Shown here: in pieces, positions 8,244 through 47,104 of the stretch
Layout of the letters: every line of letters begins with the position of its first letter
How positions within the stretch are numbered: position 1 is the first letter of the stretch
Origin: an uncultured Marinobacter sp.
Lineage (GTDB): Bacteria > Pseudomonadota > Gammaproteobacteria > Pseudomonadales > Oleiphilaceae
Assembly: GCF_946886895.1 (NCBI RefSeq)
Contig: NZ_CAMPJO010000003.1
Coordinates: forward strand, 1 to 64,000
Reading direction: 5' to 3'
Length of the DNA: 64,000 bases
Notes under the pieces: model-generated
The model's input: only the letters and a program-made list of their open reading frames with translations
Told to the model about the DNA's origin: nothing
Databases searched by the model: none
Position numbers and translations under genes: made by a program

Positions 8244-10010
8244 TTAGAACGTCCAAATCAACGGAATCAACGCAATCGAGGTAACCCCCACCAAAATACT
8301 CAACGGCAGACCAATCTTTACATAATCCGTGAACTGATACCGCCCGGGGCCGTACACCATAAGGTTGGTCTGGTACCCCAGAGGCGTAATAAAAGAAGCC
8401 GAAGCCGCAAACATCACCGCAACCGCAAAGGGAATGAAGTGAACCCCCAGTTGCTCCGAAAGCGCCAGCGCAATGGGAAACATCAGCACCGCAGCGGCGT
8501 TGTTGGTGATCACCTCGGTAAACACAGCCGTGAGCAGGTAAATCAACGCCAGTGCGGCCCAGGGGGTAAGCTCGCCCAAACCCAGCAGACCACCGGCCAC
8601 CCATTCAGCCGCACCGGTGCTGGTCATGGCATTGCCAAGTGCAAAGGAGGCGGCAATCACCACCAGCACCGGCAAATCGACGCTGCGCCGTGCCCGGCTG
8701 GCGGTAATACACCCAGACACGATCATCGCCCCGGCGGCCAGAAACGCCGCTTCCATGATCTGCAACAGCCCGGAGGCGCTGGCCAGCACCATCAGCGCCA
8801 GAATACCCATGGCCCGGGGCGCCCGGCGAAAATCGGGGGGCGTGGAATCGTTCAGCGCGCTGACCAGCAAAAAGTCCCGGCGGAACCGATACTGCTCCAC
8901 AAACTGATGACTGGCCTCCAGCAGCAGCGTATCGCCCATCCGGAAGGTAATATCCCCCAGCTTGCCAGGCACCCGCCTGCCCTCCCGGGACAGAGACAGA
9001 ATCACCGCGCTGAAGCGTGTGCGGAAACGGCTGTCACGAATGGTTTTGCCCAGCGCCGGGAATTCCGGCCCCAGCACCACTTCCACCAGGCAACGCTGGT
9101 GATTGGCTACCTCCAGCTTATGCACACTGCCGTTCGCGGGCTTGAGGCCCTGAATCCGGCGAAGTTCACTGGCACACTCGGGGGCGCCGACAAAATACAG
9201 TTTATCGCCCGGCTGAAGCATCCGGTCTGGTTCCACCGCTGTGATCAGCCGGCCACCCCGGTCGATTTCCGTCAGATACCCGTAACTCAGCGCCCGCAAC
9301 CCGGCCTCGGCAATGGTCTTGCCCACGAGTGGCCCGGGGCTCACAACCTCAACCTCCACGCCATATTCCCGGACCTGGTCCAACTCCTCCGTAACACCAC
9401 CGCGATCTGGCAATATCCGGGACGCAAACAGCACCAGAAACGTCCCGCCCACCAGCAGCAGCGGCACACCCACCCAGGCCACCTCGAACAAGCCGAGGTG
9501 GATCCCCAGCCGGCTCTGCAGCATGCCGTCCACCACCAGGTTGGTGCTGGTGCCTATTAGCGTGCAAGTGCCCCCCAGAATCGCGGCATAGCTCAGCGGC
9601 AGCAGCAACTTGGAGGCGGGCACCCCCAATCGCTGGGCCCAGTCCTGTATGGCGGGGATAAACATGGCAACCACCGCCGTGTTATTCATGAAGCCACTGA
9701 GAATGCCCGTCGGCACCACCATACGAAACTGGGCCCCCTTCTCGGTTTTCGGGTGCCCCAGCAGCAAGCGGGCAATCCACTGCACCGCCCCGGTTTCCTT
9801 CAGCCCGGCCGCCACCACATACAGTGTGGCAATGGTGATCACCCCGGGGTTACCAAAGCCCGCCAGCGCCTCGGCCGGGCCAAGAATCCCGGTAATCAGC
9901 AGAAATGCCAGCGCCGCCATAAGAATCAGATCCGCGGCAACCCGGGAAAGCACAAGCGCCGATAGCACCGAAAACAGCGTGACCAGCGTCAGAACACCTT
10001 GCCACTCCAT
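8244..10010 (-). CDS. SLC13-family anion permease with two RCK_C domains, probably sulfate
   Basis: 588 residues. Two blocks of membrane segments (about residues 1-200 and 395-588) flank a cytoplasmic region with two TrkA-C/RCK_C-like domains (roughly 215-300 and 305-385). The family takes up divalent anions such as sulfate with sodium. Repeated helical-hairpin motifs are visible: SGFMNNTAVVAMFIPA and GTSTNLVVDG in the first half, and ITNNAAAVLMFPIA and TPLGYQTNLMVYGPG in the second. Sulfate is the likely substrate because cysC lies 4 bases upstream and cysN-cysD follow in the same block. It probably feeds PAPS synthesis. Confidence 0.85.
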   Translation of the reverse strand: MEWQGVLTLVTLFSVLSALVLSRVAADLILMAALAFLLITGILGPAEALAGFGNPGVITIATLYVVAAGLKETGAVQWIARLLLGHPKTEKGAQFRMVVPTGILSGFMNNTAVVAMFIPAIQDWAQRLGVPASKLLLPLSYAAILGGTCTLIGTSTNLVVDGMLQSRLGIHLGLFEVAWVGVPLLLVGGTFLVLFASRILPDRGGVTEELDQVREYGVEVEVVSPGPLVGKTIAEAGLRALSYGYLTEIDRGGRLITAVEPDRMLQPGDKLYFVGAPECASELRRIQGLKPANGSVHKLEVANHQRCLVEVVLGPEFPALGKTIRDSRFRTRFSAVILSLSREGRRVPGKLGDITFRMGDTLLLEASHQFVEQYRFRRDFLLVSALNDSTPPDFRRAPRAMGILALMVLASASGLLQIMEAAFLAAGAMIVSGCITASRARRSVDLPVLVVIAASFALGNAMTSTGAAEWVAGGLLGLGELTPWAALALIYLLTAVFTEVITNNAAAVLMFPIALALSEQLGVHFIPFAVAVMFAASASFITPLGYQTNLMVYGPGRYQFTDYVKIGLPLSILVGVTSIALIPLIWTF

Positions 10011-10014
10011 GGAG

Positions 10015-10617
10015 TCAGTCCTTGCGGGCGATCAGCTGGCGCTCGAGTAAATAATCAATCAGTGACTCAACACATTCCTCCACGGAATGCCGGGAGGTAT
10101 CGAGCCGGATTTCCGGGTGCGCCGGCACCTCGTATGGCGAATCAATACCGGTAAAGTGCGTGATCTGGCCGGCGCGGGCCTTCTGGTACAACCCCTTGGG
10201 ATCCCGCGACTCGCAGGTTTCCAGCGGCGTATCCATGAACACCTCAATAAATTCACCCGCCGGAAACAGCTTGCGCACCATGCGCCGGTCGCTGGTAAAC
10301 GGTGAAATGAAGGCGCTCATCACAATCAGGCCGGCGTCTGCAAACAGCTTGCACACTTCCCCCACCCGGCGAATGTTCTCCTCCCGGTCCTGGTCGGAAA
10401 AGCCCAGATCATTACACAGCCCGTGGCGAACGTTATCGCCGTCCAGCAAAAAGGTATGGTAGCCCCGCCGGTGCAGGGCGACATCCAGCGCATTGGCGAT
10501 AGTGGATTTACCAGAGCCGCTGAGGCCGGTGAACCACAGCAGACAGGGCTTCTGGTTTTTGTTGGCGGAGCGCTCGGCGCGGGTGATTTTGTGGTCGTGC
10601 CAGATGATGTTGTTCAA
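10015..10617 (-). CDS. cysC: Adenylyl-sulfate kinase
   Basis: About 200 residues. It phosphorylates APS to PAPS, the donor for sulfotransferases and the substrate for PAPS reduction. The P-loop is [25 protein letters not shown] is the APS-binding region, and FTGIDSPYE is conserved near the end. The open frame reaches position 10683 from a TTG lying inside a type I repeat, which would add about 22 unrelated residues. The better start is the TTG at 10617 ([10 protein letters not shown]), with AAAGGA 8 bases upstream and good agreement with the family N-terminus. Confidence 0.93.
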
Positions 10618-10668
10618 CTTTCTGGTTCCTTTGATTCTGGTGTTTACCGCTGGCAGAAGGTGGAAGAT

Positions 10669-10696
10669 GGGGTCTGACCCCAAGGGGTCAGACCCC
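10669..10696. repeat. Type I GGGGTCTGACCCC palindromic repeat
   Basis: GGGGTCTGACCCC-AA-GGGGTCAGACCCC, followed by TTATTACAGGCCCC. It sits 25 bases from the cysN stop and 51 bases upstream of the cysC start, so it separates two genes that would otherwise be close in one operon. It has the same orientation as the copies at 21, 39592 and 44091. Confidence 0.9.
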
Positions 10697-10721
10697 TTAT
10701 TACAGGCCCCTTACTAGCCGG

Positions 10722-12134
10722 CTACACTGGTTTGCAGCCCCACTCCGGGTAATTCTCCCGGATAAACCGGTTCAGGTTCCGCTCCGCTTCCGTGTATTCA
10801 CGCTCGGGCATGGCACCGGAACTGTCCAGCGCCTTATCAACCATACCGGCGGCCACCGTCACATTGGTCAGCTTGTCAATCAGGATAAAACTGCCCGTTC
10901 CCGGATGGCGCTGGTAATCCTCAACCACCACCGGCTCGGAAAGCTCCACATCACACAGGCCGATGGCATTCAGCTCAAGGCCGCCTTTTGCCTCCGGGTA
11001 GCGCTTCAGCGTGTTTACATCAATCTCTTCAAGCACTTCATTAACATAGCAGTTGGTCACCCGGGTGCCGATTTTAATGCCGTATTCGCGGCCAGGTTTC
11101 AGCGCATTTTCATTCATCCAGACAATATGGGCGGCAAACCGGTTACCCAGGGCCGGCCGGCTATTAGCGTGTACCAGCAAATCACCCCGGGAAATATCCA
11201 CTTCGTCTTCCAGCGTCAGCGTAATGGCATCTCCTGGCCAGGATCTGTCAATCTCGCCTTCATAATTGTAAATGCCCTTCACCCGGGAGGTTTTACCAGA
11301 CGGCAACACCGCCACTTCATCGCCCTTATGAACCACACCACTGGCGATCGTGCCGCAATAACCCCGGAAATCGAGATTCGGGCGGTTTACATACTGCACC
11401 GGAAAGCGCAGATCGGTTACGTTCTGGTCTTCCAGAACCTCCACCTGCTCCAGAAGGTTCATCAGGGTCTCGCCGTGGTACCAAGGCGTCTGCTCGCTCC
11501 GATTCACCACGTTATCGCCGTTCAGGGCGGAGATTGGCACGTAATGCACGTCTTCCAGCCCGAGCTGGGCCGCCAGCTTCTGGTATTCCTCGCGGATGTT
11601 GTTGAACACCTCCTCCGAGAAATCCACCAGGTCCATCTTGTTGATGGCCACCACCACATGCTTGAGACCCAGCAGGCTGACAATAAAGCTGTGCCGCCGG
11701 GATTGAGTAAGTACTCCCTTACGAGCATCAATCATCACCACCGCCAGATCACAGGTGGAGGCGCCGGTCGCCATATTACGGGTGTACTGCTCATGGCCCG
11801 GGCAGTCGGCAATAATGAACTTGCGCTTATCGGTGGAGAAATACCGGTACGCCACATCAATGGTAATGCCCTGCTCCCGTTCGGAGGCCAGGCCATCCAC
11901 CAGCAGCGCCAGGTCCAGCGCCTCACCGGCATTGCCCTGGCGCGCGCTGTCCTTGTGGAGCGTTGCCAAGTGGTCTTCAAAGATCAGTTTGGAATCGAAC
12001 AGCAGACGGCCAATCAGGGTGGACTTGCCGTCATCAACGCTGCCACAAGTCAAAAAGCGCAGCAGGTCCTTGTTTTCGTGCTGGTCCAGGTACGCGAGGA
12101 TATCGGACTCAATTAGTTCAGAGGCGTGAGACAT
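10722..12134 (-). CDS. cysN: Sulfate adenylyltransferase subunit 1 (GTPase)
   Basis: 470 residues, normal length for stand-alone CysN without a fused CysC. It hydrolyses GTP to drive APS formation by CysD. EF-Tu-like GTPase motifs are present: the P-loop CGSVDDGKST (about 30-39), DCPGHEQYTRN and NKMDLVDF. C-terminal beta-barrel domains follow. The ATG at 12134 overlaps the last base of cysD, indicating coupling. Confidence 0.96.
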   Translation of the reverse strand: MSHASELIESDILAYLDQHENKDLLRFLTCGSVDDGKSTLIGRLLFDSKLIFEDHLATLHKDSARQGNAGEALDLALLVDGLASEREQGITIDVAYRYFSTDKRKFIIADCPGHEQYTRNMATGASTCDLAVVMIDARKGVLTQSRRHSFIVSLLGLKHVVVAINKMDLVDFSEEVFNNIREEYQKLAAQLGLEDVHYVPISALNGDNVVNRSEQTPWYHGETLMNLLEQVEVLEDQNVTDLRFPVQYVNRPNLDFRGYCGTIASGVVHKGDEVAVLPSGKTSRVKGIYNYEGEIDRSWPGDAITLTLEDEVDISRGDLLVHANSRPALGNRFAAHIVWMNENALKPGREYGIKIGTRVTNCYVNEVLEEIDVNTLKRYPEAKGGLELNAIGLCDVELSEPVVVEDYQRHPGTGSFILIDKLTNVTVAAGMVDKALDSSGAMPEREYTEAERNLNRFIRENYPEWGCKPV

Positions 12135-13048
12135 TAAAAATACCCTTCCCGTTTCTTCTGTTCCATGGACGCAGCCGAGTCATGGTCGATCACACGGCCC
12201 TGGCGCTCCGATGTCTTGGTCAACAGCATTTCCTGGATAATCTCCGGCAGCGTCGCCGCAGTAGACTCAACGGCCCCGGTCAACGGATAACACCCCAGCG
12301 TACGGAACCGCACCATCTTCATCTCGGGCTTCTCCCCGGGCTCCAGTGGCATGCGATCGTCGTCCACCATAATCAGCGTGCCGTCCCGCTCCACCACCGG
12401 GCGCTCAGCAGCGTAATACAGGGGCACAATGTCGATGTTTTCCAGGTAGATGTACTGCCAGATATCCAGCTCCGTCCAGTTGGAGAGCGGGAACACGCGA
12501 ATGCTCTCGCCCTTGTTCACCTTGCCGTTATACAGGTTCCACAGCTCCGGGCGCTGGTTTTTGGGGTCCCAGCGGTGAAATTTGTCCCGGAACGAATACA
12601 CCCGTTCCTTGGCCCGGGACTTCTCCTCATCCCGGCGGGCACCGCCGAACGCGGCATCGAAGCCGTACTTGTCCAGCGCTTGCTTCAGGGCCTGGGTTTT
12701 CATCACATCGGTGTGCTTGGCACTACCATGGGTAAACGGCCCGATGCCCTGAGCCACACCTTCCTGATTGGTGTGCACAATCAGTTTCAGGCCCAGCCGC
12801 TGGGCCAGCTCGTCCCGGAATTTGATCATCTCCCGGAACTTCCAGGTGGTGTCTACGTGCATCAGCGGGAATGGCGGCTTGCCCGGCGCAAACGCCTTCA
12901 TCGCCAGATGCAGCATGACGGCGGAATCCTTGCCAATGGAATACAGCATCACGGGGTTATCAAACTCAGCCGCCACCTCGCGGATGATATGGATGGATTC
13001 GGCCTCAAGCTGTTTGAGGTGGGTTTTCTTGGGGGGAGTTAACGCCAT
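12134..13048 (-). CDS. cysD: Sulfate adenylyltransferase subunit 2
   Basis: About 304 residues, PP-loop ATP pyrophosphatase. With CysN it makes APS from ATP and sulfate. The PP-loop is [14 protein letters not shown], followed by [11 protein letters not shown] and [16 protein letters not shown], all characteristic. The frame extends to a TTG at 13072, but the ATG at 13048 (MALTPPKK) is the conventional start. It opens the sulfate block (cysD, cysN, cysC, permease), placed inside a polysaccharide locus rather than beside reductive sulfur genes. Confidence 0.95.
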
Positions 13049-13134
13049 TTCAGTATCCGTACGGTAGATCAAAATTCGAAGGCTACAAAGGGGCAGCCCT
13101 TACCCTTCCTGAGATTCAGGGAAGCTCGATTTTT

Positions 13135-13454: not shown

Positions 13455-14012
13455 TTAGTCCTTACCAGGCACCCGATCCCCAGCCCCCTTCCCGGCAACC
13501 GTCATAAAAATGTACTTAAAATAAGCGCCGACCGTCAGATTCTCCAACATCTTCTGATCCGTCTCCGCCAACAGCTTCGGCGTCGACATATCAATATCGT
13601 TAACCTGCGCCAATCCCGTAATCCCAGGCCGGGCAGCCAGAACGCCACGCTGCTCCCGCTCAGAGATCAACTCTTCCTGATTAAACAAGCACGGGCGAGG
13701 CCCGACAAGGCTCATCTCTCCTTTTAACACGTTCCAGAGCTGAGGAAGCTCATCCAGCTTGGTGCGGCGGAGTAAATGGCCGAATTTTGTAATAGAGGTA
13801 GTGCTGGCCAGGTGGCTGGCGACCGAGGCCGTTTCCACCTTCATAGTGCGGAACTTCACCAGCGTAAACGGTTTTTTATTGCGACCAACCCGCTCCTGAC
13901 GAAATAAAGGAGAGCCCGTATCAAACAGGCCCAACACATACAGCACGGCCAGTACGGGAAAACCTATAACGAAGCCAGCTAAAGAAAAAACAATGTCCAA
14001 TAAACGAATCAA
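13455..14012 (-). CDS. Undecaprenyl-phosphate sugar phosphotransferase (initiating)
   Basis: 185 residues, bacterial sugar transferase family of the short PglC type, with one N-terminal membrane helix (residues 4-27). It transfers a sugar-1-phosphate from a UDP-sugar to undecaprenyl phosphate, starting the repeat unit. Conserved motifs are RQERVGRNKKPFTLVKFRTM, RRTKLDELPQLWNVLKGEMS and LVGPRP. Its last 104 bases are duplicated at 2200-2303. The stop lies 20 bases beyond the junction with unrelated DNA. Confidence 0.92.
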   Translation of the reverse strand: MIRLLDIVFSLAGFVIGFPVLAVLYVLGLFDTGSPLFRQERVGRNKKPFTLVKFRTMKVETASVASHLASTTSITKFGHLLRRTKLDELPQLWNVLKGEMSLVGPRPCLFNQEELISEREQRGVLAARPGITGLAQVNDIDMSTPKLLAETDQKMLENLTVGAYFKYIFMTVAGKGAGDRVPGKD

Positions 14013-16184: not shown

Positions 16185-17833
16185 ACGGCGCTCCAATAAA
16201 TACGGGTAGTCAGTTGTGAGCCGGTGAATTCGAGCAACAACTTTTGATTGGCAATCGAAACTCCAAAAGCTGGATGCCAAGAGCTTTTCACCAAGTGTGC
16301 AGTGCCCCCGGAAACCTCTACAGTCACTACATGGCCGTCAGGCAAGTGGGCCTTAAAACGGGAGTCGCCCTCTGCCTCAACAATCATCTCGGGGTGAAAG
16401 TGCCAGTGGCCAACAGCATGGTGAAACCGACCATGCAGCTCGTCCTTGACTTCCAGGCAGCCACCTGTCGCCACCCAGTATCGGCTGTGGACCACCTTGC
16501 CTGGCAGGCGTTTATACCCATCGTGGCTGGCCTGCAGGCGAACCTGGCCCTTGCTTTCCTGCAAATCCACATCAAAAGGATTTGCCCTCCTGGCCACGCG
16601 GAAACCCGCCCAGACCTCTGAGGAGTTCGCACTTTCCACTTCTACCGTATTGTGCGCAGCCGTGGAGCGTTGGCGGTGCCGCTCCGCACCCTCACCATAT
16701 TGGGATATACCGGAGTTAACCAGGACTCTCTGGCCAAACAGACTCAACTCACAACTGAGTGTGTCCGCATGGGCATGGCCGGGCTGATAGTCCGGCCCAA
16801 CACAGGCGACATCTGCAAGCAACCGGTGGCCACCGGGCCAATCGAAAACGGCATAACCACTCGAGCCCAGCCTGCAGCCCGTCAACTGATTGGTCGTAGC
16901 GGGAACGGGGACGGTAATGCCGAGCTTTTCCCCATAGTCAAGCAATTCACTGAGGGAAGGCGCAATTCCTAACGTTGCATCATTAAAAAAGGCAACGCCC
17001 CTATCTGGATGGGTCATAGCCCGCAACCACTCAAGCCCTTTAACAAAACGAGTTTCCCATAAATCGGCTCGCTGCATCAGGGGAGCCAGCTCACTGGCTT
17101 TCTGCAAGGTGAGTAAATCCGCCATATCCCAAAGCAAAATGGCATGGTACATGGGCGAACGCTCAAAATGCGCTCCATCGGCCAGAAACTGCTCTTGGAC
17201 CTGCTTATCCAGCAGTTTCAACCCTCGCTCCAGGCAGCGGTCGCCCTGTTCTCCACCTAAAAACGTGCCCACAAATACCAGGGCTTTGGCATTTGCAAAC
17301 AGATGATTAGCCAGTATATGAAACTCAAGCTGCTGTTCCAGTGCATCTGCCTGGCATGCGAGTGAGTGTAACCACTCAGGTTTTATCTGCCCTGCTTCCA
17401 ACCGACTGAACCACTTTACCCAATTGACCAAGCGTAAAGACAGGCAATAAGGCTCCCAGCCATTGCCTTGCAGGGGTGGGTTCCCAACAATCCAGGCGTC
17501 AACCATCTGCCCACAAAGCTCAGGTTTCAGCTCCGCGCCCCTGGCATTGAGATCGTCCTGATAATGCAGGTTATAGAGCCACAGTTTAGGAAAGGCGGGA
17601 TCGTTCCAGTCCCTGTCGAGACGTGCCGTTTGCCCGAGAAAGGAAAAGGTCTTGCCATCCTCCGTTGCTGATTCCATGAAAGTCAGCCCCGGCCATTTCG
17701 TTAGCGCTCCCCTTAAAGCAGGCTCAGGCTGAGCATTAAGGCGAGGCTTCCGAGCACGGTAATAAACCTGATAGAAAAGCTGCTGGAGCTTCAGATAACG
17801 AACGGTATGTAGAAGCAGGATCCAACGCTTCAT
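16181..17833 (-). CDS. Heparinase II/III-family protein
   Basis: 550 residues, with an N-terminal alpha/alpha toroid and a C-terminal beta-sandwich as in heparinase II/III and alginate lyase family proteins. Visible motifs are [38 protein letters not shown] (a catalytic His region) and [10 protein letters not shown]. No signal peptide is evident. Such genes are common inside polysaccharide loci, next to wecB/wecC and Gfo/Idh oxidoreductases, where they may trim or edit uronic-acid polymers. Substrate unknown. It overlaps wecB as ATGA. Confidence 0.87.
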
Positions 17834-18963
17834 TGCTGTTTCAAAAACTCCACAATACGGTTACAGGCACGGCCATCCCCATAGGGGTTATGGGCCTGGG
17901 ACATCCGCTGATAAACCTGCTCGTTATCCAGCAGTTCCTGCACCGCATCACGGATAACGCTGCTCTCTGTGCCCACCAATCGAACTGTACCGGCATCTGC
18001 AGCCTCCGGGCGTTCCGTTGTGTTGCGCATAACCAGCACAGGTTTACCCAATCCGGGCGCTTCCTCCTGCACACCGCCACTGTCCGTCAATACCAGAAAG
18101 GCCTTCTGCATCAGGTACACGAAAGGCTCATAGCCCAGGGGAGCAATCAAGTGGACATTGGGCAAACCTTCCAGAAGCTGGTTTACCGGTCCTTGCACAT
18201 TGGGGTTGAGGTGAACAGGATATATGAAATGCGTATCGGGATTGCCTTCTGCCAAGGCCCTCAGGGCCTTGCAGATATTCTCAAAGCCGTTGCCAAAGTT
18301 CTCGCGGCGGTGCCCTGTAACCAATACGTAGCGGTTGTCAGTGACACCGATATTCAAGCCAGCACCCGTCAGGGAGTCATTAACCTGCTGAAACAACGCG
18401 GATGAGTCAGCGGTTTTCCGGACCACCCATTGCAAGGCATCAATAACGGTATTGCCCGTAACGAGCAGCCGTTTCTCAGCAACACCCTCTGCTAGCAATG
18501 CCGTTCGATTACGTTCAGTGGGCGCAAAATGCCAGTGCGCCAGCCTTCCGGTCAGCGTGCGATTGGCTTCCTCCGGCCATGGAGAAGACAAATCACCGGT
18601 ACGGAGACCCGCCTCCACATGACCAACTCGTATCTGCTGATAAAAAGCCGCCAGCGTAGCCGCGAAAGTAGTCGCGGTATCTCCGTGAACCAGCACCACA
18701 TCCGGCCTGAAGTCTGTGAGAACATCACGCAAGCCAAGCAGAACCTTGCTGGTTACATCATAAAGATCCTGCCCCGGCCGCATGACATCCAGATCATAGT
18801 CCGGCTGAAGCGAAAACAGCGCCAGGACCTGGTCCAGCATTTCCCGGTGCTGAGCCGTAACAGCCACTCTTGCCTCGAAATAGTTGTCCGCCTGAAGGGC
18901 CTTGACCAACGGCGCCATTTTGATGGCTTCTGGCCGGGTGCCAAAAACGAGCAGGACCTTCAT
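17830..18963 (-). CDS. wecB: UDP-N-acetylglucosamine 2-epimerase (non-hydrolysing)
   Basis: 377 residues. It interconverts UDP-GlcNAc and UDP-ManNAc in the cytoplasm. Family signatures are [13 protein letters not shown] at the N-terminus, [39 protein letters not shown] and [17 protein letters not shown]. It overlaps wecC upstream and the heparinase gene downstream by ATGA junctions, so the three are probably translated together. With WecC it yields UDP-ManNAcA. Confidence 0.96.
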
Positions 18964-20162
18964 GCTTGCGACACCCCGCAGAAGTCCAGTACCTTGCCGG
19001 CAACCTCAAGTTTCTGAAACTCCCGGTGCCCAACCAGATAAATGACGATATCGGCCTCTGCCGCCGCATATGTCCAATCCGTCAAAGTTAAACTCGCGTG
19101 TTTTTTCAGGTTCGGCTCAACAGCCAGGGGCTGAACATCAGCCGCCACCAGTTGCTGAAAAACCCAAAGCGCCGGAGACTCCCGAAGGTCGTCAATATTC
19201 GGCTTGAAGGCAAGCCCCATGCAGGCAACTACGGGATTGCGCCCTTTCTCTCTCCTGAAGGAGGACACCTCCGCCTTGATTTTTTCCACCACCCACTCGG
19301 TTTTACGGGTATTCACTTCCCGCCCTGAACGAATCAAACGGGCATCGTCACCGCCCTCATGTACGATAAACCAGGGGTCCACCGCAATGCAGTGCCCGCC
19401 TACACCCGTGCCCGGTTGCAAAATGTTCACCCGTGGGTGGCGATTCGCCAGCCGGATCAGCTCCCAGACATCAATACCGAATTTGTCACTTAGCAACGAA
19501 AGTTCATTGGCAAAGGCGATATTCACATCGCGGAAGCTGTTTTCCGTCAGCTTCGCCATCTCGGCCGTGCGAGCATCGGTTACCAGGACTTCACCGGTTA
19601 CAAAGGTGCGGTAGAAGGCCGCCACCTTTTCACTGGCCTCAGGTGTAATACCTCCCACAATACGGTCATTTTCGACAAGCTCCCGCATGATATGGCCCGG
19701 TAAAACCCGCTCCGGGCAATGAGCAATATGGATGGCACCGGTATCAACGCCACTGTCACGCAGGGTTTGGGCAACCTTCTCAGTAGTGCCCACCGGGGAG
19801 GTGGACTCCAGGATCACCAAGTCACCGGGCTTGATGACTGGTGCAATCGACTGAGCTGCACTCAGTACATAGTCGATATTAGGGATAAAGCCGTCATGGA
19901 AGGGCGTAGGCACGGCAAGAATGAACACATCCGCCAGCTCGGGCCTCAAGGAAGCTTTAAGATGCCCGGAGTTAACCGCCGAATGAACAAAAGAGTCCAG
20001 ATCCGGTTCGACGATGTGAATATCACCCTGGTTGATGGTATCCACCACCTCTGGTGATATGTCCACGCCCTGAACCTGGTAGCCCCGATTGGCCAGGAGA
20101 GCGGCAGATGGCAAGCCGATGTAGCCCAGGCCAACGATACAAATTTTCAGATCAGACAACAT
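18960..20162 (-). CDS. wecC: UDP-N-acetyl-D-mannosamine dehydrogenase
   Basis: 400 residues, UDP-glucose/GDP-mannose dehydrogenase superfamily. It oxidises UDP-ManNAc to UDP-ManNAcA with NAD. The Rossmann motif is [14 protein letters not shown]. The catalytic Cys is in [17 protein letters not shown], and [17 protein letters not shown] is in the C-terminal domain. An AGGA ribosome site precedes the ATG. Together with wecB it supplies an acidic sugar for the repeat unit. Confidence 0.95.
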
Positions 20163-37064: not shown

Positions 37065-37067
37065 TGA

Positions 37068-39624: not shown

Positions 39625-40593
39625 TCAAACCCCTTTTTCAGGATTCAGGCTGTTTGCTTCCGGCTCTTTTCCGCTGCGGATGAAGGCTCGGATGAATACG
39701 ATGAATACGCCGAGCATGCCGCCTAGCAAGGTTGCCACGATGGCTATGAGCGCACGTTTGGGCTCGCTCTTTTCCTGGGGCACCACCGCCGGGTCTACGG
39801 TCTCGAACACATACTCCTGTTGAGCGTTGGCCAGCATCACCGTACGGGTCTCACTTTCGATAAGCTGATAGAACACTTGCTGCATGCCCGCCACGTTGGT
39901 GTCGTTCAGTTTGTCTTCGAGGTAATCGATTCGGGCGCTGGCTTCGGCCACGTCTTCCCGGCGCATGTGCTCGTTGATATCCGCCACCAGCCATTCGGCC
40001 CATTGCTGTGCCGCCGGGGGGGAGAGGCTTTCTACGCTGACGGTGATCATGCCGTTGTCTTTGTTCTCACTTACGTTCAGGTGGTTTTCCCTGAACGCTT
40101 TCACCAGGTCCCAGTCGATTGGCTTGTAGCTTTCACCCTCTTCGTCGGTGAGCCATTCGTTGGTGTCGGGGTTGTACACGTCGCGGTCATAAACCCAGGT
40201 TTGGTTTTTAACATTCCACCCTTCGGTGGCCATGAGTGGCACTTCCAGGTTATGGCGCCGGATGAAATCCGCCAGGAAGGCGCGGGATTGCAGCACTTCC
40301 CGGGCGATGACCGTCTGGTTGGAGCCGCCACCGCCGAGGCTGATGCCCGCAAGGCTGGCCAGGCCACCAAGTTGGCCAGCGAGGCCGCTTACGCCGCCCT
40401 CTTCGTTGGCGGGCGCGAGCAGTACGCTGGCCTGGTAGATATTGGGCTTGTAGAGGGCGTAGGCGACGCCGGCGACGGCGAAGACGAAGGTAATGGCGAT
40501 GATCAGCCATTTGCCGGCCCAGAGGGTGGCGAAGAGTTCGCGAAGGTCGATTTCGTCGTCTGGGTAGTGCTGGGGGTCTGGTGTTTGGGTCAT
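39625..40593 (-). CDS. Polysaccharide chain-length determinant (Wzz-like)
   Basis: 322 residues, Wzz domain protein with two membrane helices (about 32-52 and 285-305) flanking a periplasmic coiled region. EIDLRELFATLWAGKWLII opens the first helix. Glycine-rich GQLGGLASLAGISLGGG and the Pro-rich entry to the second helix (VPQEKSEPKRALI) are typical. No C-terminal tyrosine-kinase domain is present. It controls polymer length with the EpsG-type polymerase. Confidence 0.9.
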   Translation of the reverse strand: MTQTPDPQHYPDDEIDLRELFATLWAGKWLIIAITFVFAVAGVAYALYKPNIYQASVLLAPANEEGGVSGLAGQLGGLASLAGISLGGGGSNQTVIAREVLQSRAFLADFIRRHNLEVPLMATEGWNVKNQTWVYDRDVYNPDTNEWLTDEEGESYKPIDWDLVKAFRENHLNVSENKDNGMITVSVESLSPPAAQQWAEWLVADINEHMRREDVAEASARIDYLEDKLNDTNVAGMQQVFYQLIESETRTVMLANAQQEYVFETVDPAVVPQEKSEPKRALIAIVATLLGGMLGVFIVFIRAFIRSGKEPEANSLNPEKGV

Positions 40594-41381: not shown

Positions 41382-44018
41382 TTAAAGGTTGCCTACGGCG
41401 GCAGCACCCAGGGCCATCTGATAGACGATCTGGCTGACGTTGGTCCAGAGTTCGAGCTGGTTCAGGCGGTCTACGTCGATGGGGACGATGATGGTGTCGC
41501 CAGGCTGCAGTTGCTGGCTGCGGCCGCCGAACCAGGCGCTTTGTTCCGGCAGCATCACGGAGCCGTCGGCTTTCACGACGTAGATCCGGTCTTCGTCGGC
41601 CTGGCGGGTGGGGCCGCCACTGCGTTCGAGGTAGTCATCCACGGTGAGGCCGGCGGTGTGCAGGTGGCTGGTGGGGAACTGCACTTCGCCGAATACGCTC
41701 ACGGCCTGCGGGATGGCCGGTACGGTGAGTTCGTCGCCGTCCTGCAGGCGAATGGGCTGGTAGCCGCTGTCGGCCAGTACGGCGGGCAGGTTGATCACCA
41801 TGCGGCCGACGGGGCGGCTGCTTTGAACATCTTCGAGCAGGCCACGCACCTGGTCCACTTGCTGGGCTTTCTTGCCACCGAAGCCATCGCCTTCCAGCTG
41901 TACGCCCAGCAGGTCGCCTTTCAGCCGTTCCTCGGCCTCCCTCAGTCTCTGGGCTTCCAGTTGGCGGAGTTTTTCCCGGGTGAAGACGGCGCCCCGTGGG
42001 AAGGCGTTGTTGGTGAGGCCGCCGGCACGTTCAATAACGTGCTCAAGGGTTTCGCCTTCCCGGAAGGTATATTCGCCGGGGTAAAGTACTTCGCCGCTCA
42101 GGGTGACGGTTCGCGTTGTTCCGAACGAGGGTACGGATTTGATCAGCAGCCGGTCGCGGCTTTGCAGTCGGATATCGCTGGTGTTGAGCATTGCCTTGGT
42201 AAGGTCTACCTCTATGATGCGGGTTTGCTCCACGCCGTTGTCGTCGGTGTAGCGCCGGGCCAGTTCGGCGGAATACAGGGAGGCGGAATCGGTGAGCCCG
42301 CCGGCCACGAAGATGGCGTCTTTCACGGTGCCGGAGACCGGCAACGGGTATTCGCCGGGGTACCGGACCGGGCCTGAAATGCCCATGATTTGTTGCGGGC
42401 TGTTGGGGCCTGCTTGGGATTTCAGGCGTTTGATGACTGGCGCGAACAGTGTCTCTCTCGAATAGTTCCGGGCTTTCCTTTTTAGCTCTTTCTGATCGCG
42501 AGCCTCCTCTTCCGATATATCTGTCTGCTGATTCCCTTCCGGTGGAATGCCTTCCGCTGACTCTGACTCCCTCTCTCTCTGCCTGTCTCCCCGCTCTGTG
42601 ATATCAAGCTCAAACGACACTTTTCCGGCGTTGGTGAAGAACAGTAACTGGTCTTTTTCCTGCAGGATCAGGTCTTCCGGGCTGCCCGGCTGGGTGACGG
42701 CGGCTTTCAGCTCCAGGTTGAGCACGGAAATACGGTGGGTCTCCGGGTCGGTTCTCACGATGGCGGCGTAGTTGGTGTCTGCGAAGGAGAGCAGGCCTGC
42801 ATCCAGGTTGCGGATAACGGAGCTCACGCGCATGCCGGGCACCCAGGCGTATTTACCGGTACGGGTGGCGGCGCCTTTGATTTCAATGTACTGGCCAGTC
42901 ACGTCGGCGATGGAGGCAACGGTAACCCGGTCTCCGGACTGCACCCGGGCGTTTTTCCCGGTGGCCTGGGTGAGGTCTGCTTCGGCAATGATGCGCAGGT
43001 AATCCTCGTTGGTGCGTTCAATTTTGGTGATCTGCGGGTAGGCCTGGGGGGTGAGGCCGCCGGCCAGGCGCACCAGTTCCTGGAGGCTGGTTTGCGTGCC
43101 GATTTCGTACAGGGCCGGGCGATACACTTCACCGCCGATGCCCGCCCGGGGGCCGACGGGGGGAATAAAGATTACGTCGCCGGCCTGCAGGCGGGCATCG
43201 TCTGAGGTGTCGCCTTTCAGCAGCAGGTCGTAAAGATCCAGGGTGCCGATCAGTTTGCCATCGCGCTTGTGCTGCACGTTACGGAGGGAGCCGGTGTTTT
43301 TAATGCCACCAGAGACGTACAGCGCGTTGGTGATGGTGGAAAGCGAGCTTACGCTGTAGGAGCCGGGCGTTCTGGCTTCGCCCAGGATAAACACGCGCAT
43401 GCTGCGTAACTCCCCCAGGGACACCGCCGCTTTTACGCCAATGTACTGCTCTGATACGAGCTGGGTAAGCTGGTCCCGGACCTGCTGAAAGTTTTGCCCC
43501 GCCACAGACACCGGGCCGCGTTCCGGGAAATCGATGGTGCCATCGCGAGACACCGGCAGCTCAAGCTGCTTGTTCTGGTTGCCCCAGAGTTGAACCCGGA
43601 GCACATCGCCCGGGCCGAGGGTGTATTCGGAGGGTACCGGGATTTCGGTAACCGGCGCAAAGGTGGTTGGTTCGCCGGCAAAGAGGTTGTAACCGAAAGG
43701 CTTGAGGCCTCCCGGCTCTTCACCACCTTTTTCGCTGATTTGCCGGTTCTGTTCTTCGTCGCCGGTGCCGTTCTGGCCTGTTTCCCCTTGCTGGTTGCCG
43801 TTGGCCGGCCGAACCACATCTATCTCCTGAGGGCGCTGGTTCTGGAGGTTGCCCGCTTGCAGGCTGTCCAGGTCCACGCCGTATTGCCGTGCCAGGGCTT
43901 CCTGCTGTGCCTGCGGGAGGCTTTTGAATTGTTCGATCTGGGCGGGGGTGATGGACTGGGCGCTGGCTGCCATGGGGAGCAGGAAGGCCGCGGTTGCGAG
44001 TAGGCTTTTCAGGTTCAC
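41382..44018 (-). CDS. Outer-membrane polysaccharide export protein with SLBB repeats (Wza-like)
   Basis: 878 residues, large for the family. A signal peptide is at residues 1-20 (LLATAAFLLPMAASA). A Poly_export domain starts near YTLGPGDVLRVQLWG (about 133-147), followed by several SLBB domains (GEARTPGSYSVSSLS, SGPVRYPGEYPLPVSG, SGEVLYPGEYTFREGE, FGEVQFPTSHLHTAGL). No lipobox Cys follows the signal. This resembles long SLBB exporters of capsule and slime. GTG start. Confidence 0.92.
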   Translation of the reverse strand: MNLKSLLATAAFLLPMAASAQSITPAQIEQFKSLPQAQQEALARQYGVDLDSLQAGNLQNQRPQEIDVVRPANGNQQGETGQNGTGDEEQNRQISEKGGEEPGGLKPFGYNLFAGEPTTFAPVTEIPVPSEYTLGPGDVLRVQLWGNQNKQLELPVSRDGTIDFPERGPVSVAGQNFQQVRDQLTQLVSEQYIGVKAAVSLGELRSMRVFILGEARTPGSYSVSSLSTITNALYVSGGIKNTGSLRNVQHKRDGKLIGTLDLYDLLLKGDTSDDARLQAGDVIFIPPVGPRAGIGGEVYRPALYEIGTQTSLQELVRLAGGLTPQAYPQITKIERTNEDYLRIIAEADLTQATGKNARVQSGDRVTVASIADVTGQYIEIKGAATRTGKYAWVPGMRVSSVIRNLDAGLLSFADTNYAAIVRTDPETHRISVLNLELKAAVTQPGSPEDLILQEKDQLLFFTNAGKVSFELDITERGDRQRERESESAEGIPPEGNQQTDISEEEARDQKELKRKARNYSRETLFAPVIKRLKSQAGPNSPQQIMGISGPVRYPGEYPLPVSGTVKDAIFVAGGLTDSASLYSAELARRYTDDNGVEQTRIIEVDLTKAMLNTSDIRLQSRDRLLIKSVPSFGTTRTVTLSGEVLYPGEYTFREGETLEHVIERAGGLTNNAFPRGAVFTREKLRQLEAQRLREAEERLKGDLLGVQLEGDGFGGKKAQQVDQVRGLLEDVQSSRPVGRMVINLPAVLADSGYQPIRLQDGDELTVPAIPQAVSVFGEVQFPTSHLHTAGLTVDDYLERSGGPTRQADEDRIYVVKADGSVMLPEQSAWFGGRSQQLQPGDTIIVPIDVDRLNQLELWTNVSQIVYQMALGAAAVGNL

Positions 44019-44135: not shown

Positions 44136-45617
44136 CTAAAATCGGTAGCGCCAGGTGGCCTCTGCGGACCACTGGCTTTGCACACCGTTGATGAGCTGCA
44201 ATTTTTTATCAGTAAAACTCGTTGTCAGGTCGAGCCAGCCATTCAGCAATGGCAGGCCGTAGCCTATGGTCGCGATAACAGCTTGCTGATTGCCTTCCGC
44301 CACGGCGTATTGAATGTCGGGGGTGGTCACGACCGTTTGGTTGGCACCGTCTTTGTTGAAGTCCACGTAGCTGAGCCTGGCGGAGGCGTTTCGTCCGTCG
44401 GGAAAGAAGTTGAACAGCCCCAGAGTGATGGCCTCTGAATCGCCGTCGACGCTGGCACCGAGGGTTCTGCCATTATAACGATAGCCACTTCTGTAGCGAG
44501 AGTGATCGTAGGTGATATTGGGCATGGCATCGCCGGGAAAGTCGTCTGCCAGGGTATTGGTGTACTCGGCAAACCATTGCTGATCATGGCCGAAGAGTTG
44601 ACCGGTCATGTCCACGCCCAGGAGCCAGGATTTGCGGGCCGGGAAGGCACCGGCTTCGTCTTCGCCCATCATTTGCCCGTACACGCCCATGGACTGTTGG
44701 CCGAGGGCAAAGCCGTAGCGAACGTCGATACTGCCGAGCTGGTTGCCGGGGTCGTTTTCCTCGAGTTGGCCATTGTCACGACCGATCAGGGCGTTCCAGA
44801 TGGTGGACGCGCCTTCCGGGCGGCCCTGGCCACCAAACATGATGGCCCGGGAAAAGCCAATATCGAGCCCTTGGATCGGTCGTACTGTGAGTCGCATTCC
44901 AATCAGCTTTGCGTCTGGAATGGCGCGTTCTTCCTCAAACTGGCCGGCAAATACCGTGAACTGCCAGGGGCCTATCCATTCCAGCCAGTCTGTTTGTGGC
45001 GCGTTGGCGTCCTTACGATTGAGCCACACCGCCGGCAGTGGCCGGGCGTTGTCGGAAAGAATAAGGCTGGACTGCCAGCCCGGCCCCCACCAGCGATCAA
45101 TGGCGCCGGCGCCGAACACCCAATTGCCCGCCGTGGCGGCGAGGTAACTGTTGTCCAACCGCAACGATTCGTCGTCTTCCGGATTGTGGGCGTATGTTGG
45201 GTTCAGGCCGGCGGCCCAGTGTTCGCCTTGCCACTGGAGATTCACGGAGGCCAGGCCCTCGGCGGTCACTGCCTGTTCGAAGCCCTGAACTACCGGTACG
45301 TCGTTGGTGGCGGCAAGTGTTATTTCCGCCCGAAAGCCCGGCGAGGCCTGCTGTTCTTTCTCGAATCGCAGATAAGCCGCCGCGCTGCCAACGGACTGAT
45401 GGTCACCGGCGATTCCAGACCCAAGCCCGTTATGAACGGTTGCCCACATAAGCGGCCAGGTAGTGACACCACGATCCAGGTGACCCCTATCCGCCAGTTT
45501 CTGCGCCGCAAACCGGGCTCTAGGGTCTCCGGGCTCCAGCCAGGGTGCCGCGGCTATCGAAAAACTGAACAGGCACGCTACCGCCCCACCAACCAGGGCC
45601 CAGTGTTTTGAGGTCAT
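44136..45617 (-). CDS. Capsule assembly Wzi-family outer-membrane protein
   Basis: 493 residues with a signal peptide (residues 1-23, ending SIAAA). The rest has the alternating pattern of an outer-membrane beta-barrel and ends in an aromatic residue (WRYRF). ATAGNWVFGAGAIDRWWGPG and SRAIMFGGQGRPEG are typical of Wzi-type proteins, which anchor capsule at the cell surface. It is the first gene of the 45-kb minus-strand run, with a 9-base tandem repeat in its leader. Confidence 0.88.
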   Translation of the reverse strand: MTSKHWALVGGAVACLFSFSIAAAPWLEPGDPRARFAAQKLADRGHLDRGVTTWPLMWATVHNGLGSGIAGDHQSVGSAAAYLRFEKEQQASPGFRAEITLAATNDVPVVQGFEQAVTAEGLASVNLQWQGEHWAAGLNPTYAHNPEDDESLRLDNSYLAATAGNWVFGAGAIDRWWGPGWQSSLILSDNARPLPAVWLNRKDANAPQTDWLEWIGPWQFTVFAGQFEEERAIPDAKLIGMRLTVRPIQGLDIGFSRAIMFGGQGRPEGASTIWNALIGRDNGQLEENDPGNQLGSIDVRYGFALGQQSMGVYGQMMGEDEAGAFPARKSWLLGVDMTGQLFGHDQQWFAEYTNTLADDFPGDAMPNITYDHSRYRSGYRYNGRTLGASVDGDSEAITLGLFNFFPDGRNASARLSYVDFNKDGANQTVVTTPDIQYAVAEGNQQAVIATIGYGLPLLNGWLDLTTSFTDKKLQLINGVQSQWSAEATWRYRF

Positions 45618-45790: not shown

Positions 45791-45843
45791 GGGGTCAGAC
45801 CCCAATGCATTTCGCCCGGTGAAATACCTTGGGGTCTGACCCC
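45791..45843. repeat. Type II 53-base palindromic repeat
   Basis: GGGGTCAGACCCC, a 27-base centre with ATTTCGCCCGGTGAAAT as an inner palindrome, then GGGGTCTGACCCC. It begins three bases after the rfaH stop codon. Confidence 0.92.
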
Positions 45844-45846
45844 AGC

Positions 45847-46332
45847 TTAGCGTTCAGGTTTTAGCGCAGACACCGGCACTTTTACCCGTTGCTGCTTTTG
45901 CATGAAGCTGATCAGCACGATGGCGCGTTCTTCGCCATCGTAGGCCTGGAAGATGGCGCTGACGCCTTCAAAGGGGCCTTCGCTGAGATGGACCGCCTGG
46001 CCGGGTTTGATGCCGCCCTGCTCTGCTACGGAGTCGAGGCTGTTTTTGATGTGCAGGATGACATCGTCGCTGATGGCGGCGGGTTTGTTGGAAAAGCTGA
46101 CAATTCGCAATACGCCCCGGGTGGAACGCAGCTTGGACCACATGGGGTCGGTCTGATCAAGGTTGACGAACAGGTAGCCGGGGAACAGGGGCTCCAGCTT
46201 TTTGCTGCGCTTTCCGGCCTTGATCTTCTCTACAGTGATTTTCGGGTAGAAGCAGGCGATGTCCTGGTTCTGGAGGTGCGTAAGGGCGCGGTCGCCCTGG
46301 GCGGGTTTGTGTTGGAGTGCGTACCAGGTCAT
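45847..46332 (-). CDS. rfaH: RfaH-type transcription antiterminator
   Basis: About 161 residues, NusG paralogue. It keeps RNA polymerase going through long surface-polysaccharide operons after recruitment at ops sites. MTWYALQHKPAQGDRALTHL, FYPKITVEKI and EPLFPGYLFVNLD form the NGN domain. GQAVHLSEGPFEGVSAIFQ starts the KOW-type C-terminal domain. The longer frame to 46362 adds an unlikely N-terminus. It lies 4 bases after cysQ and just upstream of the 45-kb operon it probably controls. Confidence 0.93.
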   Translation of the reverse strand: MTWYALQHKPAQGDRALTHLQNQDIACFYPKITVEKIKAGKRSKKLEPLFPGYLFVNLDQTDPMWSKLRSTRGVLRIVSFSNKPAAISDDVILHIKNSLDSVAEQGGIKPGQAVHLSEGPFEGVSAIFQAYDGEERAIVLISFMQKQQRVKVPVSALKPER

Positions 46333-46336
46333 GCGA

Positions 46337-47104
46337 TTAACGATACCAGCTTCCTGACGCAATAAAATACGGATTTAACACATCTTGTTTACCGTATTTG
46401 AGCGGCTCACCGCCCAGGGTTTGCACCTTGCCACCGGCCGCCATCAGTACAGCCTGGGCCGCTCCGGTATCCCATTCACAGGTGGGGCTCAGGCGCGGGT
46501 AGATGTCGGCATGGCCCTCGGCGATGCGGCAGAATTTCAGGGAGCTGCCGGCCTGCACCAGTTCGTGCTCGCCCAGGCTGTCGATGAAGGTTCGGGTTTC
46601 GTCATTCAGGTGGTTTTTGCTGGCAACAACGCGCCGGGCGGCTTTGGGTTCCGCCACCTGGATGCGACGAACTTTGCCGTTACGGTCCCGCTTGTGGGCA
46701 CCCTCTCCTTTCACGCCCCAGTAGGCTTCGTGCTGGGCCGGCGCGGTGACCACGCCCAATATGGGCTCGCCGTTCTCGATCAGCGCGATGTTAACGGTGA
46801 ATTCGCCGGTGCGCTGGGTAAAATCCCGGGTGCCGTCGATGGGATCAATCAGCCAGAACCGCCGCCAGTGCTTGCGCTCCTCCCAGGGAATCTCCTTGCC
46901 CTCTTCCGAGAGAATGGGAATGTCATGACTGATGCCGCGCAGGCCACGCACGATGATGTCATGGCTGGCCAGATCCGCCGCCGTGATGGGCGACTGATCT
47001 TCCTTGTAATTCACCTTGAAGTCAGACTGATAGATATGCAGAACCCGCTCACTGGCTTCGTCTGCCACTTTAATTACATCCGGAAGAATGGCGCTGTAAT
47101 GCAT
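46337..47104 (-). CDS. cysQ: 3'(2'),5'-bisphosphate nucleotidase
   Basis: 255 residues, inositol-monophosphatase fold. It dephosphorylates PAP, the product of PAPS-using enzymes, to AMP. Metal-binding motifs are PILSEEGKEIP, WLIDPIDGTRDFTQR (about residues 85-99) and CEWDTGAAQAVL. The frame extends to 47212 only because it reads through a type II repeat; the ATG at 47104 (MHYSAILPD) is the real start. It is co-transcribed with rfaH and functionally linked to the sulfotransferase in the locus. Confidence 0.94.
   Translation of the reverse strand: MHYSAILPDVIKVADEASERVLHIYQSDFKVNYKEDQSPITAADLASHDIIVRGLRGISHDIPILSEEGKEIPWEERKHWRRFWLIDPIDGTRDFTQRTGEFTVNIALIENGEPILGVVTAPAQHEAYWGVKGEGAHKRDRNGKVRRIQVAEPKAARRVVASKNHLNDETRTFIDSLGEHELVQAGSSLKFCRIAEGHADIYPRLSPTCEWDTGAAQAVLMAAGGKVQTLGGEPLKYGKQDVLNPYFIASGSWYR

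What the first reader, a model, noticed from the sequence alone, without database searches (positions are those of the whole stretch)
8244..47104. A sulfur-dedicated polysaccharide locus: SQD1-like enzyme, sulfotransferase, PAPS synthesis and PAP removal together
The locus encodes an SLC13 permease, CysC, CysN and CysD (8244-13048), an SQD1-like UDP-sulfoquinovose synthase (27979-29169) and a P-loop sulfotransferase (31793-32809). CysQ (46337-47104) sits beside rfaH just upstream. From known family roles these would import sulfate, make PAPS, sulfate a sugar, clear PAP, and build a sulfonated sugar nucleotide. Finding both a sulfate-ester and a C-sulfonate route in one exported-glycan cluster is unusual; SQD1 is best known from sulfolipid and archaeal N-glycans. 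The sulfite source for SQD1 is not visible in the window.
Basis: partly seen in the sequence, partly recalled or inferred. Interest (0 to 1): 0.72.

Follow-up and report, generated by a model that had tools for sequence, protein, structure and literature searches.

The report
Capsule locus with sulfite-using sugar module
A large bacterial capsule gene cluster carries ordinary genes for adding sulfate to sugars, plus an unrecognised sister family of the plant sulfolipid enzyme that comes as a conserved gene module, sometimes with its own sulfite-making gene, and so probably builds a sugar with a direct carbon-sulfur bond.

Summary
In detail: all named genes are there, on the minus strand, in a Wzx/Wzy-type capsule locus. 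The sulfate-ester half (SLC13 permease, CysDNC, PF13469 sulfotransferase, CysQ) has published precedents in Vibrio and Cobetia.

The SQD1-like protein (27979-29169) is not an ordinary SQD1. Where Arabidopsis SQD1 and cyanobacterial copies have Arg101, a residue essential in Agl3, it has Pro. Of 104 distinct relatives 81 have Pro, 23 Arg, none a third residue; one branch (SH-aLRT 98) separates the two sets.

It overlaps the first of two further SDR genes (26996-27988; capD2 25902-26999). CapD2 lies within 10 kb in 87 of 107 Pro-type loci and 0 of 35 Arg-type loci.

The sulfite source missing here shows up in relatives. CysH, which releases sulfite, lies within 10 kb in 8 of 107 Pro-type loci (6 in one tight gene run) and 0 of 35 Arg-type loci; in 4 of those 8 genomes it is an extra copy.

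Best reading: a module making a C6-sulfonated sugar nucleotide from sulfite, probably not plain UDP-sulfoquinovose, possibly a 6-sulfo-HexNAc, inside a sulfated-capsule locus. Product and substrate are untested.

The parts
27979..29169 (-). SQD1-like SDR of the Pro-type sister family (396 aa); T158, M159, E161, Y162, Y195, H196, K199 kept; Pro114 replaces SQD1 Arg101
26996..27988 (-). SDR (330 aa), GalE/WbgU/RmlB-like; overlaps the SQD1-like gene by 10 bases; candidate C4-epimerase or 4-keto reductase of the product
   Evidence: homologue within 10 kb in 46 of 80 top loci and 9 of 27 class-sample Pro-type loci
25902..26999 (-). CapD2, PF02719 SDR (365 aa); best solved relative is Pen 6bwc (260 bits) but motif SSDKAVNPTNVMGTSK with Met as in WbpM/PglF/CapE; overlaps the 26996 gene by 4 bases
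31793..32809 (-). sulfotransferase, PF13469
8244..10010 (-). SLC13/DASS-type permease with TrkA_C domains (sulfate import, inferred)
10015..10683 (-). CysC, APS kinase
10722..12134 (-). CysN, ATP sulfurylase large subunit
12134..13072 (-). CysD, ATP sulfurylase small subunit; overlaps cysN by 1 base
46337..47212 (-). CysQ, PAP phosphatase (likely start near 47104); overlaps rfaH
45847..46362 (-). RfaH-like antiterminator (NusG domain)
45575..45585 (-). exact ops-like element GGCGGTAGCGT just inside the called start of wzi (motif recalled; 2 exact matches in the window)
44136..45617 (-). Wzi capsule assembly protein
41382..44018 (-). Wza-like SLBB/Poly_export outer-membrane export protein
39625..40593 (-). 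Wzz-like chain-length protein
30266..31726 (-). Wzx-like flippase
24692..25684 (-). EpsG-family polymerase (Wzy role inferred)
17830..20162 (-). WecB and WecC, UDP-ManNAcA supply
13455..14012 (-). initiating sugar-phosphate transferase (PF02397)

Best explanation
This is a Wzx/Wzy-type capsule locus whose polymer is sulfated (O- or N-sulfate from PAPS: permease, CysDNC, sulfotransferase, CysQ). It also carries a three-gene nucleotide-sugar module (SQD1-like, SDR, CapD2) that adds sulfite to C6 of a UDP-sugar.

Proposed mechanism. CapD2 oxidises and dehydrates a UDP-HexNAc, as its characterised relatives do. The SQD1-like enzyme adds sulfite to the 4-keto-5,6-ene and re-reduces it. The SDR sets the C4 configuration. 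The sugar is then polymerised and exported.

Sulfite comes from (P)APS through a CysH encoded outside the window here, but beside the module in some relatives.

Shown: gene content and overlaps, the Arg-to-Pro family split, the CapD2 linkage and the CysH linkage in relatives. Inferred: sulfite as co-substrate, the C-S bond, the HexNAc substrate, the division of labour with CapD2, and sulfation of this polymer.
For: Family split: among 104 distinct relatives 81 Pro and 23 Arg at SQD1 R101, no third state. One branch, SH-aLRT 98, 1 change on 166 rows (quick tree). Agl3 R101A is inactive (PMC4388408 section 6).

Module: overlapping genes in the window. CapD2 within 10 kb in 72 of 80 nearest relatives and 15 of 27 Pro-type genes of a class sample, versus 0 of 35 Arg-type loci.

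Sulfite: CysH within 10 kb in 4 of 80 and 4 of 27 Pro-type loci versus 0 of 35 Arg-type. Class-sample chance expectation 0.11, P(>=4) 5.5e-6. 6 of 8 are above the CysH cut-off; all 8 keep ECG[LI]H. At least 7 changes (gains or losses) on the tree. Extra copies in 4 of 8 genomes. In 6 of 8 loci cysH is in an unbroken same-strand run with the module. L130 (77% identical): cysH-SDR-SDR-capD2-SQD1L with gaps of 2, 46 and 8 bases and a 4-base overlap.

Sulfation; precedents.

Distinct product: Pro- and Arg-type genes lie in one locus in L073 and L133.
Against: No product or substrate is known.

CysH is near only 8 of 107 Pro-type genes. Against the Arg-type alone the contrast is not significant (Fisher p 0.20); against Arg-type plus 27 control loci p is 0.027. 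Two of the 8 CysH (L136, L137) are below the family cut-off. If only the two strong ones of the class sample count, P(>=2) at expectation 0.11 is about 0.006 (hand arithmetic). CysH seeds came from four Pro-type loci. In L132 cysH is about 9 kb away, and in L015 it lies on the opposite strand.

The Agl3 essential Arg is missing, so the enzyme may not handle sulfite at all.

CapD2 is absent from 12 of 27 class-sample Pro-type loci, 10 of them deeper branches (400 bits or less to the window protein).

CapD2 has the Met-type motif, not Pen's Tyr motif, so a released 5,6-ene is not predicted by the motif.

Some carriers show neither APS kinase nor a PF01507 protein, e.g. the small SAR11 genome G092, though it may be incomplete.
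Confidence: 0.55

Rival explanations
1. The SQD1-like enzyme simply makes UDP-sulfoquinovose from UDP-Glc and sulfite. CapD2 works on another sugar of the same polymer and the SDR may turn UDP-SQ into UDP-sulfofucose.
For: Full-length similarity to SQD1; catalytic Thr, Met, Tyr, His, Lys invariant and Glu mostly kept; CysH linkage. No sulfofucose pathway was known to PMC12421959 (passage), and the SDR's best solved relative is a UDP-glucose 4-epimerase.
Against: Arg101 replaced by Pro throughout the sister family. CapD2 linkage is stronger than a shared-polymer coincidence would need (72 of 80). Arg-type copies lie near Pro-type copies in L073 and L133, which would be redundant.
Confidence: 0.2
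2. The Pro-type enzyme does not use sulfite. Without Arg101 it acts as an ordinary SDR (dehydratase, epimerase or reductase) in a three-step deoxy- or aminosugar pathway with CapD2 and the SDR. Sulfur genes are near only because such sugars occur in sulfated marine polysaccharides.
For: Agl3 R101A is inactive. CysH is present in only 8 of 107 loci. In the class sample, sulfotransferases are about as common near Arg-type (4 of 26) as near Pro-type (6 of 27) genes (counted by hand from the truncated list; Fisher 0.73).
Against: CysH makes sulfite, not PAPS, so sulfation does not explain it. It is in one same-strand run with the module in L065, L072, L078, L130, L136 and L137, the linkage needs at least 7 changes on the tree, and it is an extra copy in 4 genomes.
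Confidence: 0.22
3. Only the sulfate-ester branch matters. CysDNC/SLC13 at 8244-13072 is the housekeeping sulfate-assimilation operon that merely adjoins the capsule genes.
For: No whole genome is held. In 9 of 13 genomes with an APS kinase within 40 kb of the SQD1-like gene, no APS kinase was found farther away, so a capsule-linked copy can be the only one.
Against: APS kinase is near SQD1-like loci more often than near control polysaccharide loci of the same set of genomes (9 of 56 versus 1 of 91 within 20 kb), and the window also has a sulfotransferase and CysQ in the same strand block.
Confidence: 0.25

Closest known systems
UDP-sulfoquinovose synthases SQD1 / SqdB / Agl3
   Same: SDR fold, full-length alignment, GGDGYLGW, T-M-G-E-Y and YHxxK motifs, His of VIHYAEQ.
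   Different: Pro instead of Arg101, Trp173 for Tyr160, Tyr34 for Leu34, Glu247 for Gly234. Separate branch. Coupled to CapD2; in 35 Arg-type loci CapD2 is never within 10 kb.
Sulfated capsule loci of Vibrio sp. KMM 8419 and Cobetia marina KMM 1449 (PMC11641403, PMC11766843; passages seen)
   Same: cysC/cysN/cysD inside the capsule cluster (second copies in the Vibrio), sulfotransferase; Cobetia also cysQ and a sulfate permease.
   Different: Those use ABC (Kps) export, and a search of their main texts for sulfoquinovose found 0 occurrences. This one is Wzx/Wzy-type with the SQD1-like module.
Pen of Bacillus thuringiensis (UDP-GlcNAc 5,6-dehydratase) and WbpM/PglF/CapE
   Same: CapD2's best solved relative is Pen (260 bits); the relatives tabulated in PMC8987622 (Pen, PseB/FlaA1, WbpM/PglF) use UDP-GlcNAc (passages).
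   Different: CapD2 has the Met of WbpM/PglF/CapE, not the Tyr of Pen or PseB (67 of 67).
CysH (P)APS reductases
   Same: NF002537 above cut-off in 6 of 8, ECG[LI]H catalytic Cys in 8 of 8, Fe-S cysteine pairs in 5 of 8 (motif roles recalled).
   Different: Located beside a nucleotide-sugar module rather than with cysteine-pathway genes; not found in this window.

Membership tests
UDP-sulfoquinovose synthase (SQD1/SqdB/Agl3) | SDR catalytic Thr, Tyr, Lys | tested here: met
   T158, Y195, K199; these columns are invariant in 104 rows
UDP-sulfoquinovose synthase (SQD1/SqdB/Agl3) | Glu-Tyr pair of the dehydratase step (Agl3 E147, Y148) | tested here: met
   E161, Y162 in the window; Glu in 99 of 106 rows, Val in 7
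UDP-sulfoquinovose synthase (SQD1/SqdB/Agl3) | Arg101 (R101A inactive in Agl3) | tested here: not met
   Pro114 in the window; 104 distinct relatives: 81 Pro, 23 Arg, Arabidopsis SQD1 and the 19 copies fetched from the cyanobacterial-phylum search among the Arg set (PMC4388408 section 6)
UDP-sulfoquinovose synthase (SQD1/SqdB/Agl3) | placement inside the SQD1/SqdB clade | tested here: not met
   109 Pro-type and 57 Arg-type rows lie on two sides of one branch, SH-aLRT 98, quick tree without bootstrap
UDP-sulfoquinovose synthase (SQD1/SqdB/Agl3) | NCBIfam NF041015 cut-off | tested here: inconclusive
   421 of 575 bits, but cyanobacterial copies also fail it
[quoted passage not shown]
   needs enzyme assay
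Sulfated capsule locus with own PAPS supply | cysDNC in the capsule cluster | tested here: met
Sulfated capsule locus with own PAPS supply | carbohydrate sulfotransferase in the cluster | tested here: met
   PF13469 44.7 bits, cut-off 27; that its acceptor is a carbohydrate is inferred from the locus
Sulfated capsule locus with own PAPS supply | PAP phosphatase and sulfate permease | tested here: met
   CysQ above cut-off; SLC13-type permease by Pfam, below the TIGR00785 cut-off
Sulfated capsule locus with own PAPS supply | cysDNC is a second copy | not testable with these tools
   no genome held
Wzx/Wzy-type capsule | Wzx, Wzy, Wzz, Wza, Wzi | tested here: met
   (Wzy role given to an EpsG-family protein)
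Pen-type UDP-GlcNAc 5,6-dehydratase (CapD2) | [ST]DK...Y catalytic motif | tested here: not met
   Met in place of Tyr in the window and in 67 of 67 neighbours
WbpM/PglF-type UDP-GlcNAc 4,6-dehydratase (CapD2) | [ST]DK...M...K motif | tested here: met
   SSDKAVNPTNVMGTSK; motif table in PMC8987622

The most novel reading that the evidence does not exclude
The SQD1-like/SDR/CapD2 module is a new, widespread pathway for a C6-sulfonated amino sugar nucleotide (UDP-6-deoxy-6-sulfo-HexNAc). CapD2 supplies the dehydration step that the Arg-less SQD1 relative has lost, and CysH supplies sulfite. The resulting sulfonated aminosugar would be an unrecognised building block of bacterial surface polysaccharides from Gammaproteobacteria to Desulfobacterota.
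Probability: 0.3. Interest if true: 0.82.

Novelty: new variant of a known kind. Interest (0 to 1): 0.66.

Why it matters
Members of this family carry the source name 'UDP-sulfoquinovose synthase' in metagenome annotation, so organosulfur budgets may count them as sulfoquinovose makers. If they make a different sulfonated sugar in exported polymers, there is a hidden source of sulfonates in marine and sulfidic habitats and a new sugar to look for. The module gives concrete genes for testing how sulfite is added to C6 and whether the dehydration and sulfonation steps can be split between two enzymes. It also gives candidate genes for the biosynthesis of rare sulfosugars such as sulfofucose, for which PMC12421959 says no biosynthetic pathway had been identified (passage).

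Tried and rejected
NCBIfam cut-off as a membership test: rejected, since cyanobacterial copies fail it too.

CapD2 as a straightforward Pen: rejected on the catalytic Met.

Sulfotransferase linkage as evidence specific to the Pro-type family: it holds against control loci of the same selected genomes, but not against Arg-type genes in the class sample (6 of 27 Pro-type versus 4 of the 26 Arg-type loci examined, out of 34; counted by hand from a truncated list for 50 genomes), and with the seed search at 10 kb it was 0 of 27 Pro-type and 1 of 34 Arg-type. I therefore claim it only for the window's nearer relatives.

Rickettsiales locus L071: cysD and cysNC lie next to the SQD1-like gene and no PF13469 hit was found in that genome; a CysH-sized PF01507 protein lies on another contig. 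Its other neighbours told nothing about sulfite.

Plasmid search with the SQD1-like protein: 23 records, all under 60% identity, no help for function.

Literature: the listings (each capped) showed no title on this module or on a sulfonated bacterial capsule sugar. Only open-licence papers are held, so this is not proof of absence. The SQD1 crystal paper is not held. Where Arg101 lies in the SQD1 structure was not tested and is not used as evidence.

Not run: structure prediction, the AU test and bootstraps on the tree, and a family survey in Desulfobacterota beyond the loci found.

Full report
What is in the window. Every gene named in the finding is present, on the minus strand. Pfam and NCBIfam scans confirm SLC13, CysC, CysN, CysD, CysQ, RfaH and a PF13469 sulfotransferase. 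Around them is a Wzx/Wzy-type capsule locus: Wzi, Wza, Wzz, Wzx, an EpsG-type polymerase, an initiating transferase, glycosyltransferases, UDP-ManNAcA genes and dTDP-sugar genes. An exact ops-like element sits just inside the called start of wzi, behind rfaH. The host is unknown: no genome is held. The closest SQD1-like relative among the named genome loci is 89% identical, in a MAG labelled SAR86.

The sulfate-ester branch. Permease, ATP sulfurylase, APS kinase, sulfotransferase and PAP phosphatase make a complete set for sulfating a glycan. This is a known kind of locus. Vibrio sp. KMM 8419 has second copies of cysC, cysN and cysD in its capsule cluster, and Cobetia marina KMM 1449 has cysN/cysC, cysD, cysQ and a sulfate permease; both papers report sulfated capsule structures (PMC11641403 and PMC11766843, passages).

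The SQD1-like protein. It aligns over its full length with Arabidopsis SQD1 (380 bits) and keeps Thr, Met, Glu, Tyr, His and Lys of the active site. But SQD1 Arg101 is Pro114 here. In Agl3 of Sulfolobus, Ala replacement of this Arg inactivates the enzyme; the primer codons (GAGCAG GCT TCTGCTCCG) place it in the EQ-R-SAP motif (PMC4388408 section 6). Among 104 distinct relatives, 81 have Pro and 23 have Arg, with no third state; further columns split the same way. The Arg set of that call is Arabidopsis SQD1, the 19 copies fetched from the cyanobacterial-phylum search, one Okeania copy, one from a Mesorhizobium genome and one from the deltaproteobacterial locus L073. On a quick maximum-likelihood tree of 166 rows the two sets lie on either side of one branch (SH-aLRT 98, 1 change). 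Falling below the NCBIfam cut-off says nothing, because cyanobacterial copies also do. Five genomes are seen to carry both types (G008, G020; G019; L073; L133). In L073 and L133 the two lie in the same locus, which argues against one product.

A conserved module. In the window the SQD1-like gene overlaps the next SDR by 10 bases, and that SDR overlaps capD2 by 4. In these 80, capD2 is by far the most common neighbour (65 loci by clustering at 38% identity; 72 of 80 by profile within 10 kb), followed by the 26996-type SDR (46 of 80). Beyond these and the SQD1-like gene itself, no cluster reached more than 6 loci. In an even draw of 369 gammaproteobacterial and 385 alphaproteobacterial genomes there were 65 hits. 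I fetched 60 stretches holding 61 of them; of the four left out, three were already in the top 80 and one (G019:C10) was not fetched. There, 15 of 27 Pro-type genes have capD2 within 10 kb; 10 of the 12 others are deeper branches. None of 35 Arg-type loci (34 class sample, 1 from the top 80) has it. Contig ends cut some flanks. CapD2 is closest to Pen among solved structures, but carries SSDKAVNPTNVMGTSK with Met, as in WbpM/PglF/CapE; all 67 neighbours examined have Met. The relatives tabulated in PMC8987622 act on UDP-GlcNAc (passages).

The sulfite source. A search found no CysH in the window. Relatives do have it. CysH lies within 10 kb in 8 of 107 Pro-type loci and 0 of 35 Arg-type loci. 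The loci are L015, L065, L072, L078, L130, L132, L136 and L137. Six exceed the family cut-off; L136 and L137 do not. All keep ECG[LI]H and five have the CC and CxxC cysteine pairs of Fe-S APS reductases. In six (L065, L072, L078, L130, L136, L137) cysH is in one unbroken same-strand run with the module; in L015 it is divergent and in L132 about 9 kb away. L130 (77% identical to the window protein) has cysH-SDR-SDR-capD2-SQD1L with gaps of 2, 46 and 8 bases and a 4-base overlap; L072 has cysH-SDR-capD2-SQD1L-SDR; L078 has cysH directly after SQD1L. The linkage needs at least 7 changes on the tree. In 4 of the 8 genomes the module copy is additional to another CysH above cut-off; in the other 4 it is the only one found. 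In the class sample 4 were seen where 0.11 are expected by chance (P 5.5e-6); with only the two strong ones P is about 0.006 by hand. Against the Arg-type loci alone the contrast is not significant (p 0.20); with 27 control loci added p is 0.027.

Link to sulfation genes. In 50 genomes chosen because they carry the SQD1-like gene, I compared 56 SQD1-like loci (defined by score; not every one checked for Pro or for capD2) with 91 other loci marked by PF02397 in 36 of the same genomes. APS kinase within 20 kb: 9 versus 1 (p 8e-4). PF13469 within 20 kb: 18 versus 3 (p 2e-6). The genomes are not independent, and they were selected. In the class sample the sulfotransferase link does not separate Pro-type from Arg-type genes. 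So the pairing seen in the window recurs among its nearer relatives, but is not shown to be a rule for the family.

Mechanism. SQD1 and Agl3 oxidise C4, eliminate water to a 5,6-ene and add sulfite (PMC4388408 and PMC8987622, passages). A relative without the Arg needed for that reaction, tied to a dehydratase of a UDP-GlcNAc-using group and repeatedly to a sulfite-making enzyme, is best explained as a sulfite-adding enzyme acting on a dehydrated UDP-HexNAc. That is inference; substrate and product are untested. Plain UDP-SQ, and a pathway without sulfite, remain possible and are scored as rivals.

Verdict. Observation confirmed. The sulfate-ester half is a new member of a known kind. The SQD1-like half is a distinct, widespread family, probably a new variant of the sulfosugar pathway, whose main open question (which sulfonated sugar, if any) can be tested directly.

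Noticed in passing
window 36552-38324 (-): Two-gene AAA ATPase plus small partner matching PADLOC candidate defence pair PDC-M07A/B (552 and 170 bits), inserted between rmlA and rmlB inside the capsule operon.
   Followed up: no
window 2372-7917 (-): Pseudaminic acid genes: PseI, PseC and PseB above NCBIfam cut-offs, with acetyltransferase, PseG-like and cytidylyltransferase genes between them, next to a WbpM-type dehydratase at 68-2008.
   Followed up: partly
window 51622-57986 (-): Type VI secretion spike (VgrG-like) with DUF4123 and VasX_N proteins just upstream of the capsule locus.
   Followed up: no
window 60046-62667 (-): Pilin gene followed by an O-antigen-ligase-family protein (Wzy_C), an arrangement that suggests pilin glycosylation.
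   Followed up: no
window 16181-17833 (-): Heparinase II/III-like lyase inside the capsule operon.
   Followed up: no
window 20177-22336 (-): Fusion of a zinc alcohol-dehydrogenase-like part with a GFO_IDH_MocA oxidoreductase, 719 aa.
   Followed up: no
window 32824-33816 (-): 330-aa protein between the sulfotransferase and wbqC with no family above cut-off; only a weak DegT/DnrJ match (13.6 bits).
   Followed up: partly
L073 6850-8067 and 10510-11661; L133: Arg-type and Pro-type SQD1 relatives in the same locus, suggesting two different sulfosugars or steps.
   Followed up: partly
L001-L080: By my count of record titles, 35 of the 80 nearest loci come from sulfate-reducer-type (Desulfobacterota and allied Deltaproteobacteria) genomes, which make sulfite internally (recalled); not normalised for sampling.
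   Followed up: no
L071 7222-11158 (+): Rickettsiales MAG with cysD and a cysN-cysC fusion next to the SQD1-like gene, no PF13469 sulfotransferase found in the genome, and a CysH-sized PF01507 protein on another contig; what uses the PAPS is unclear.
   Followed up: partly
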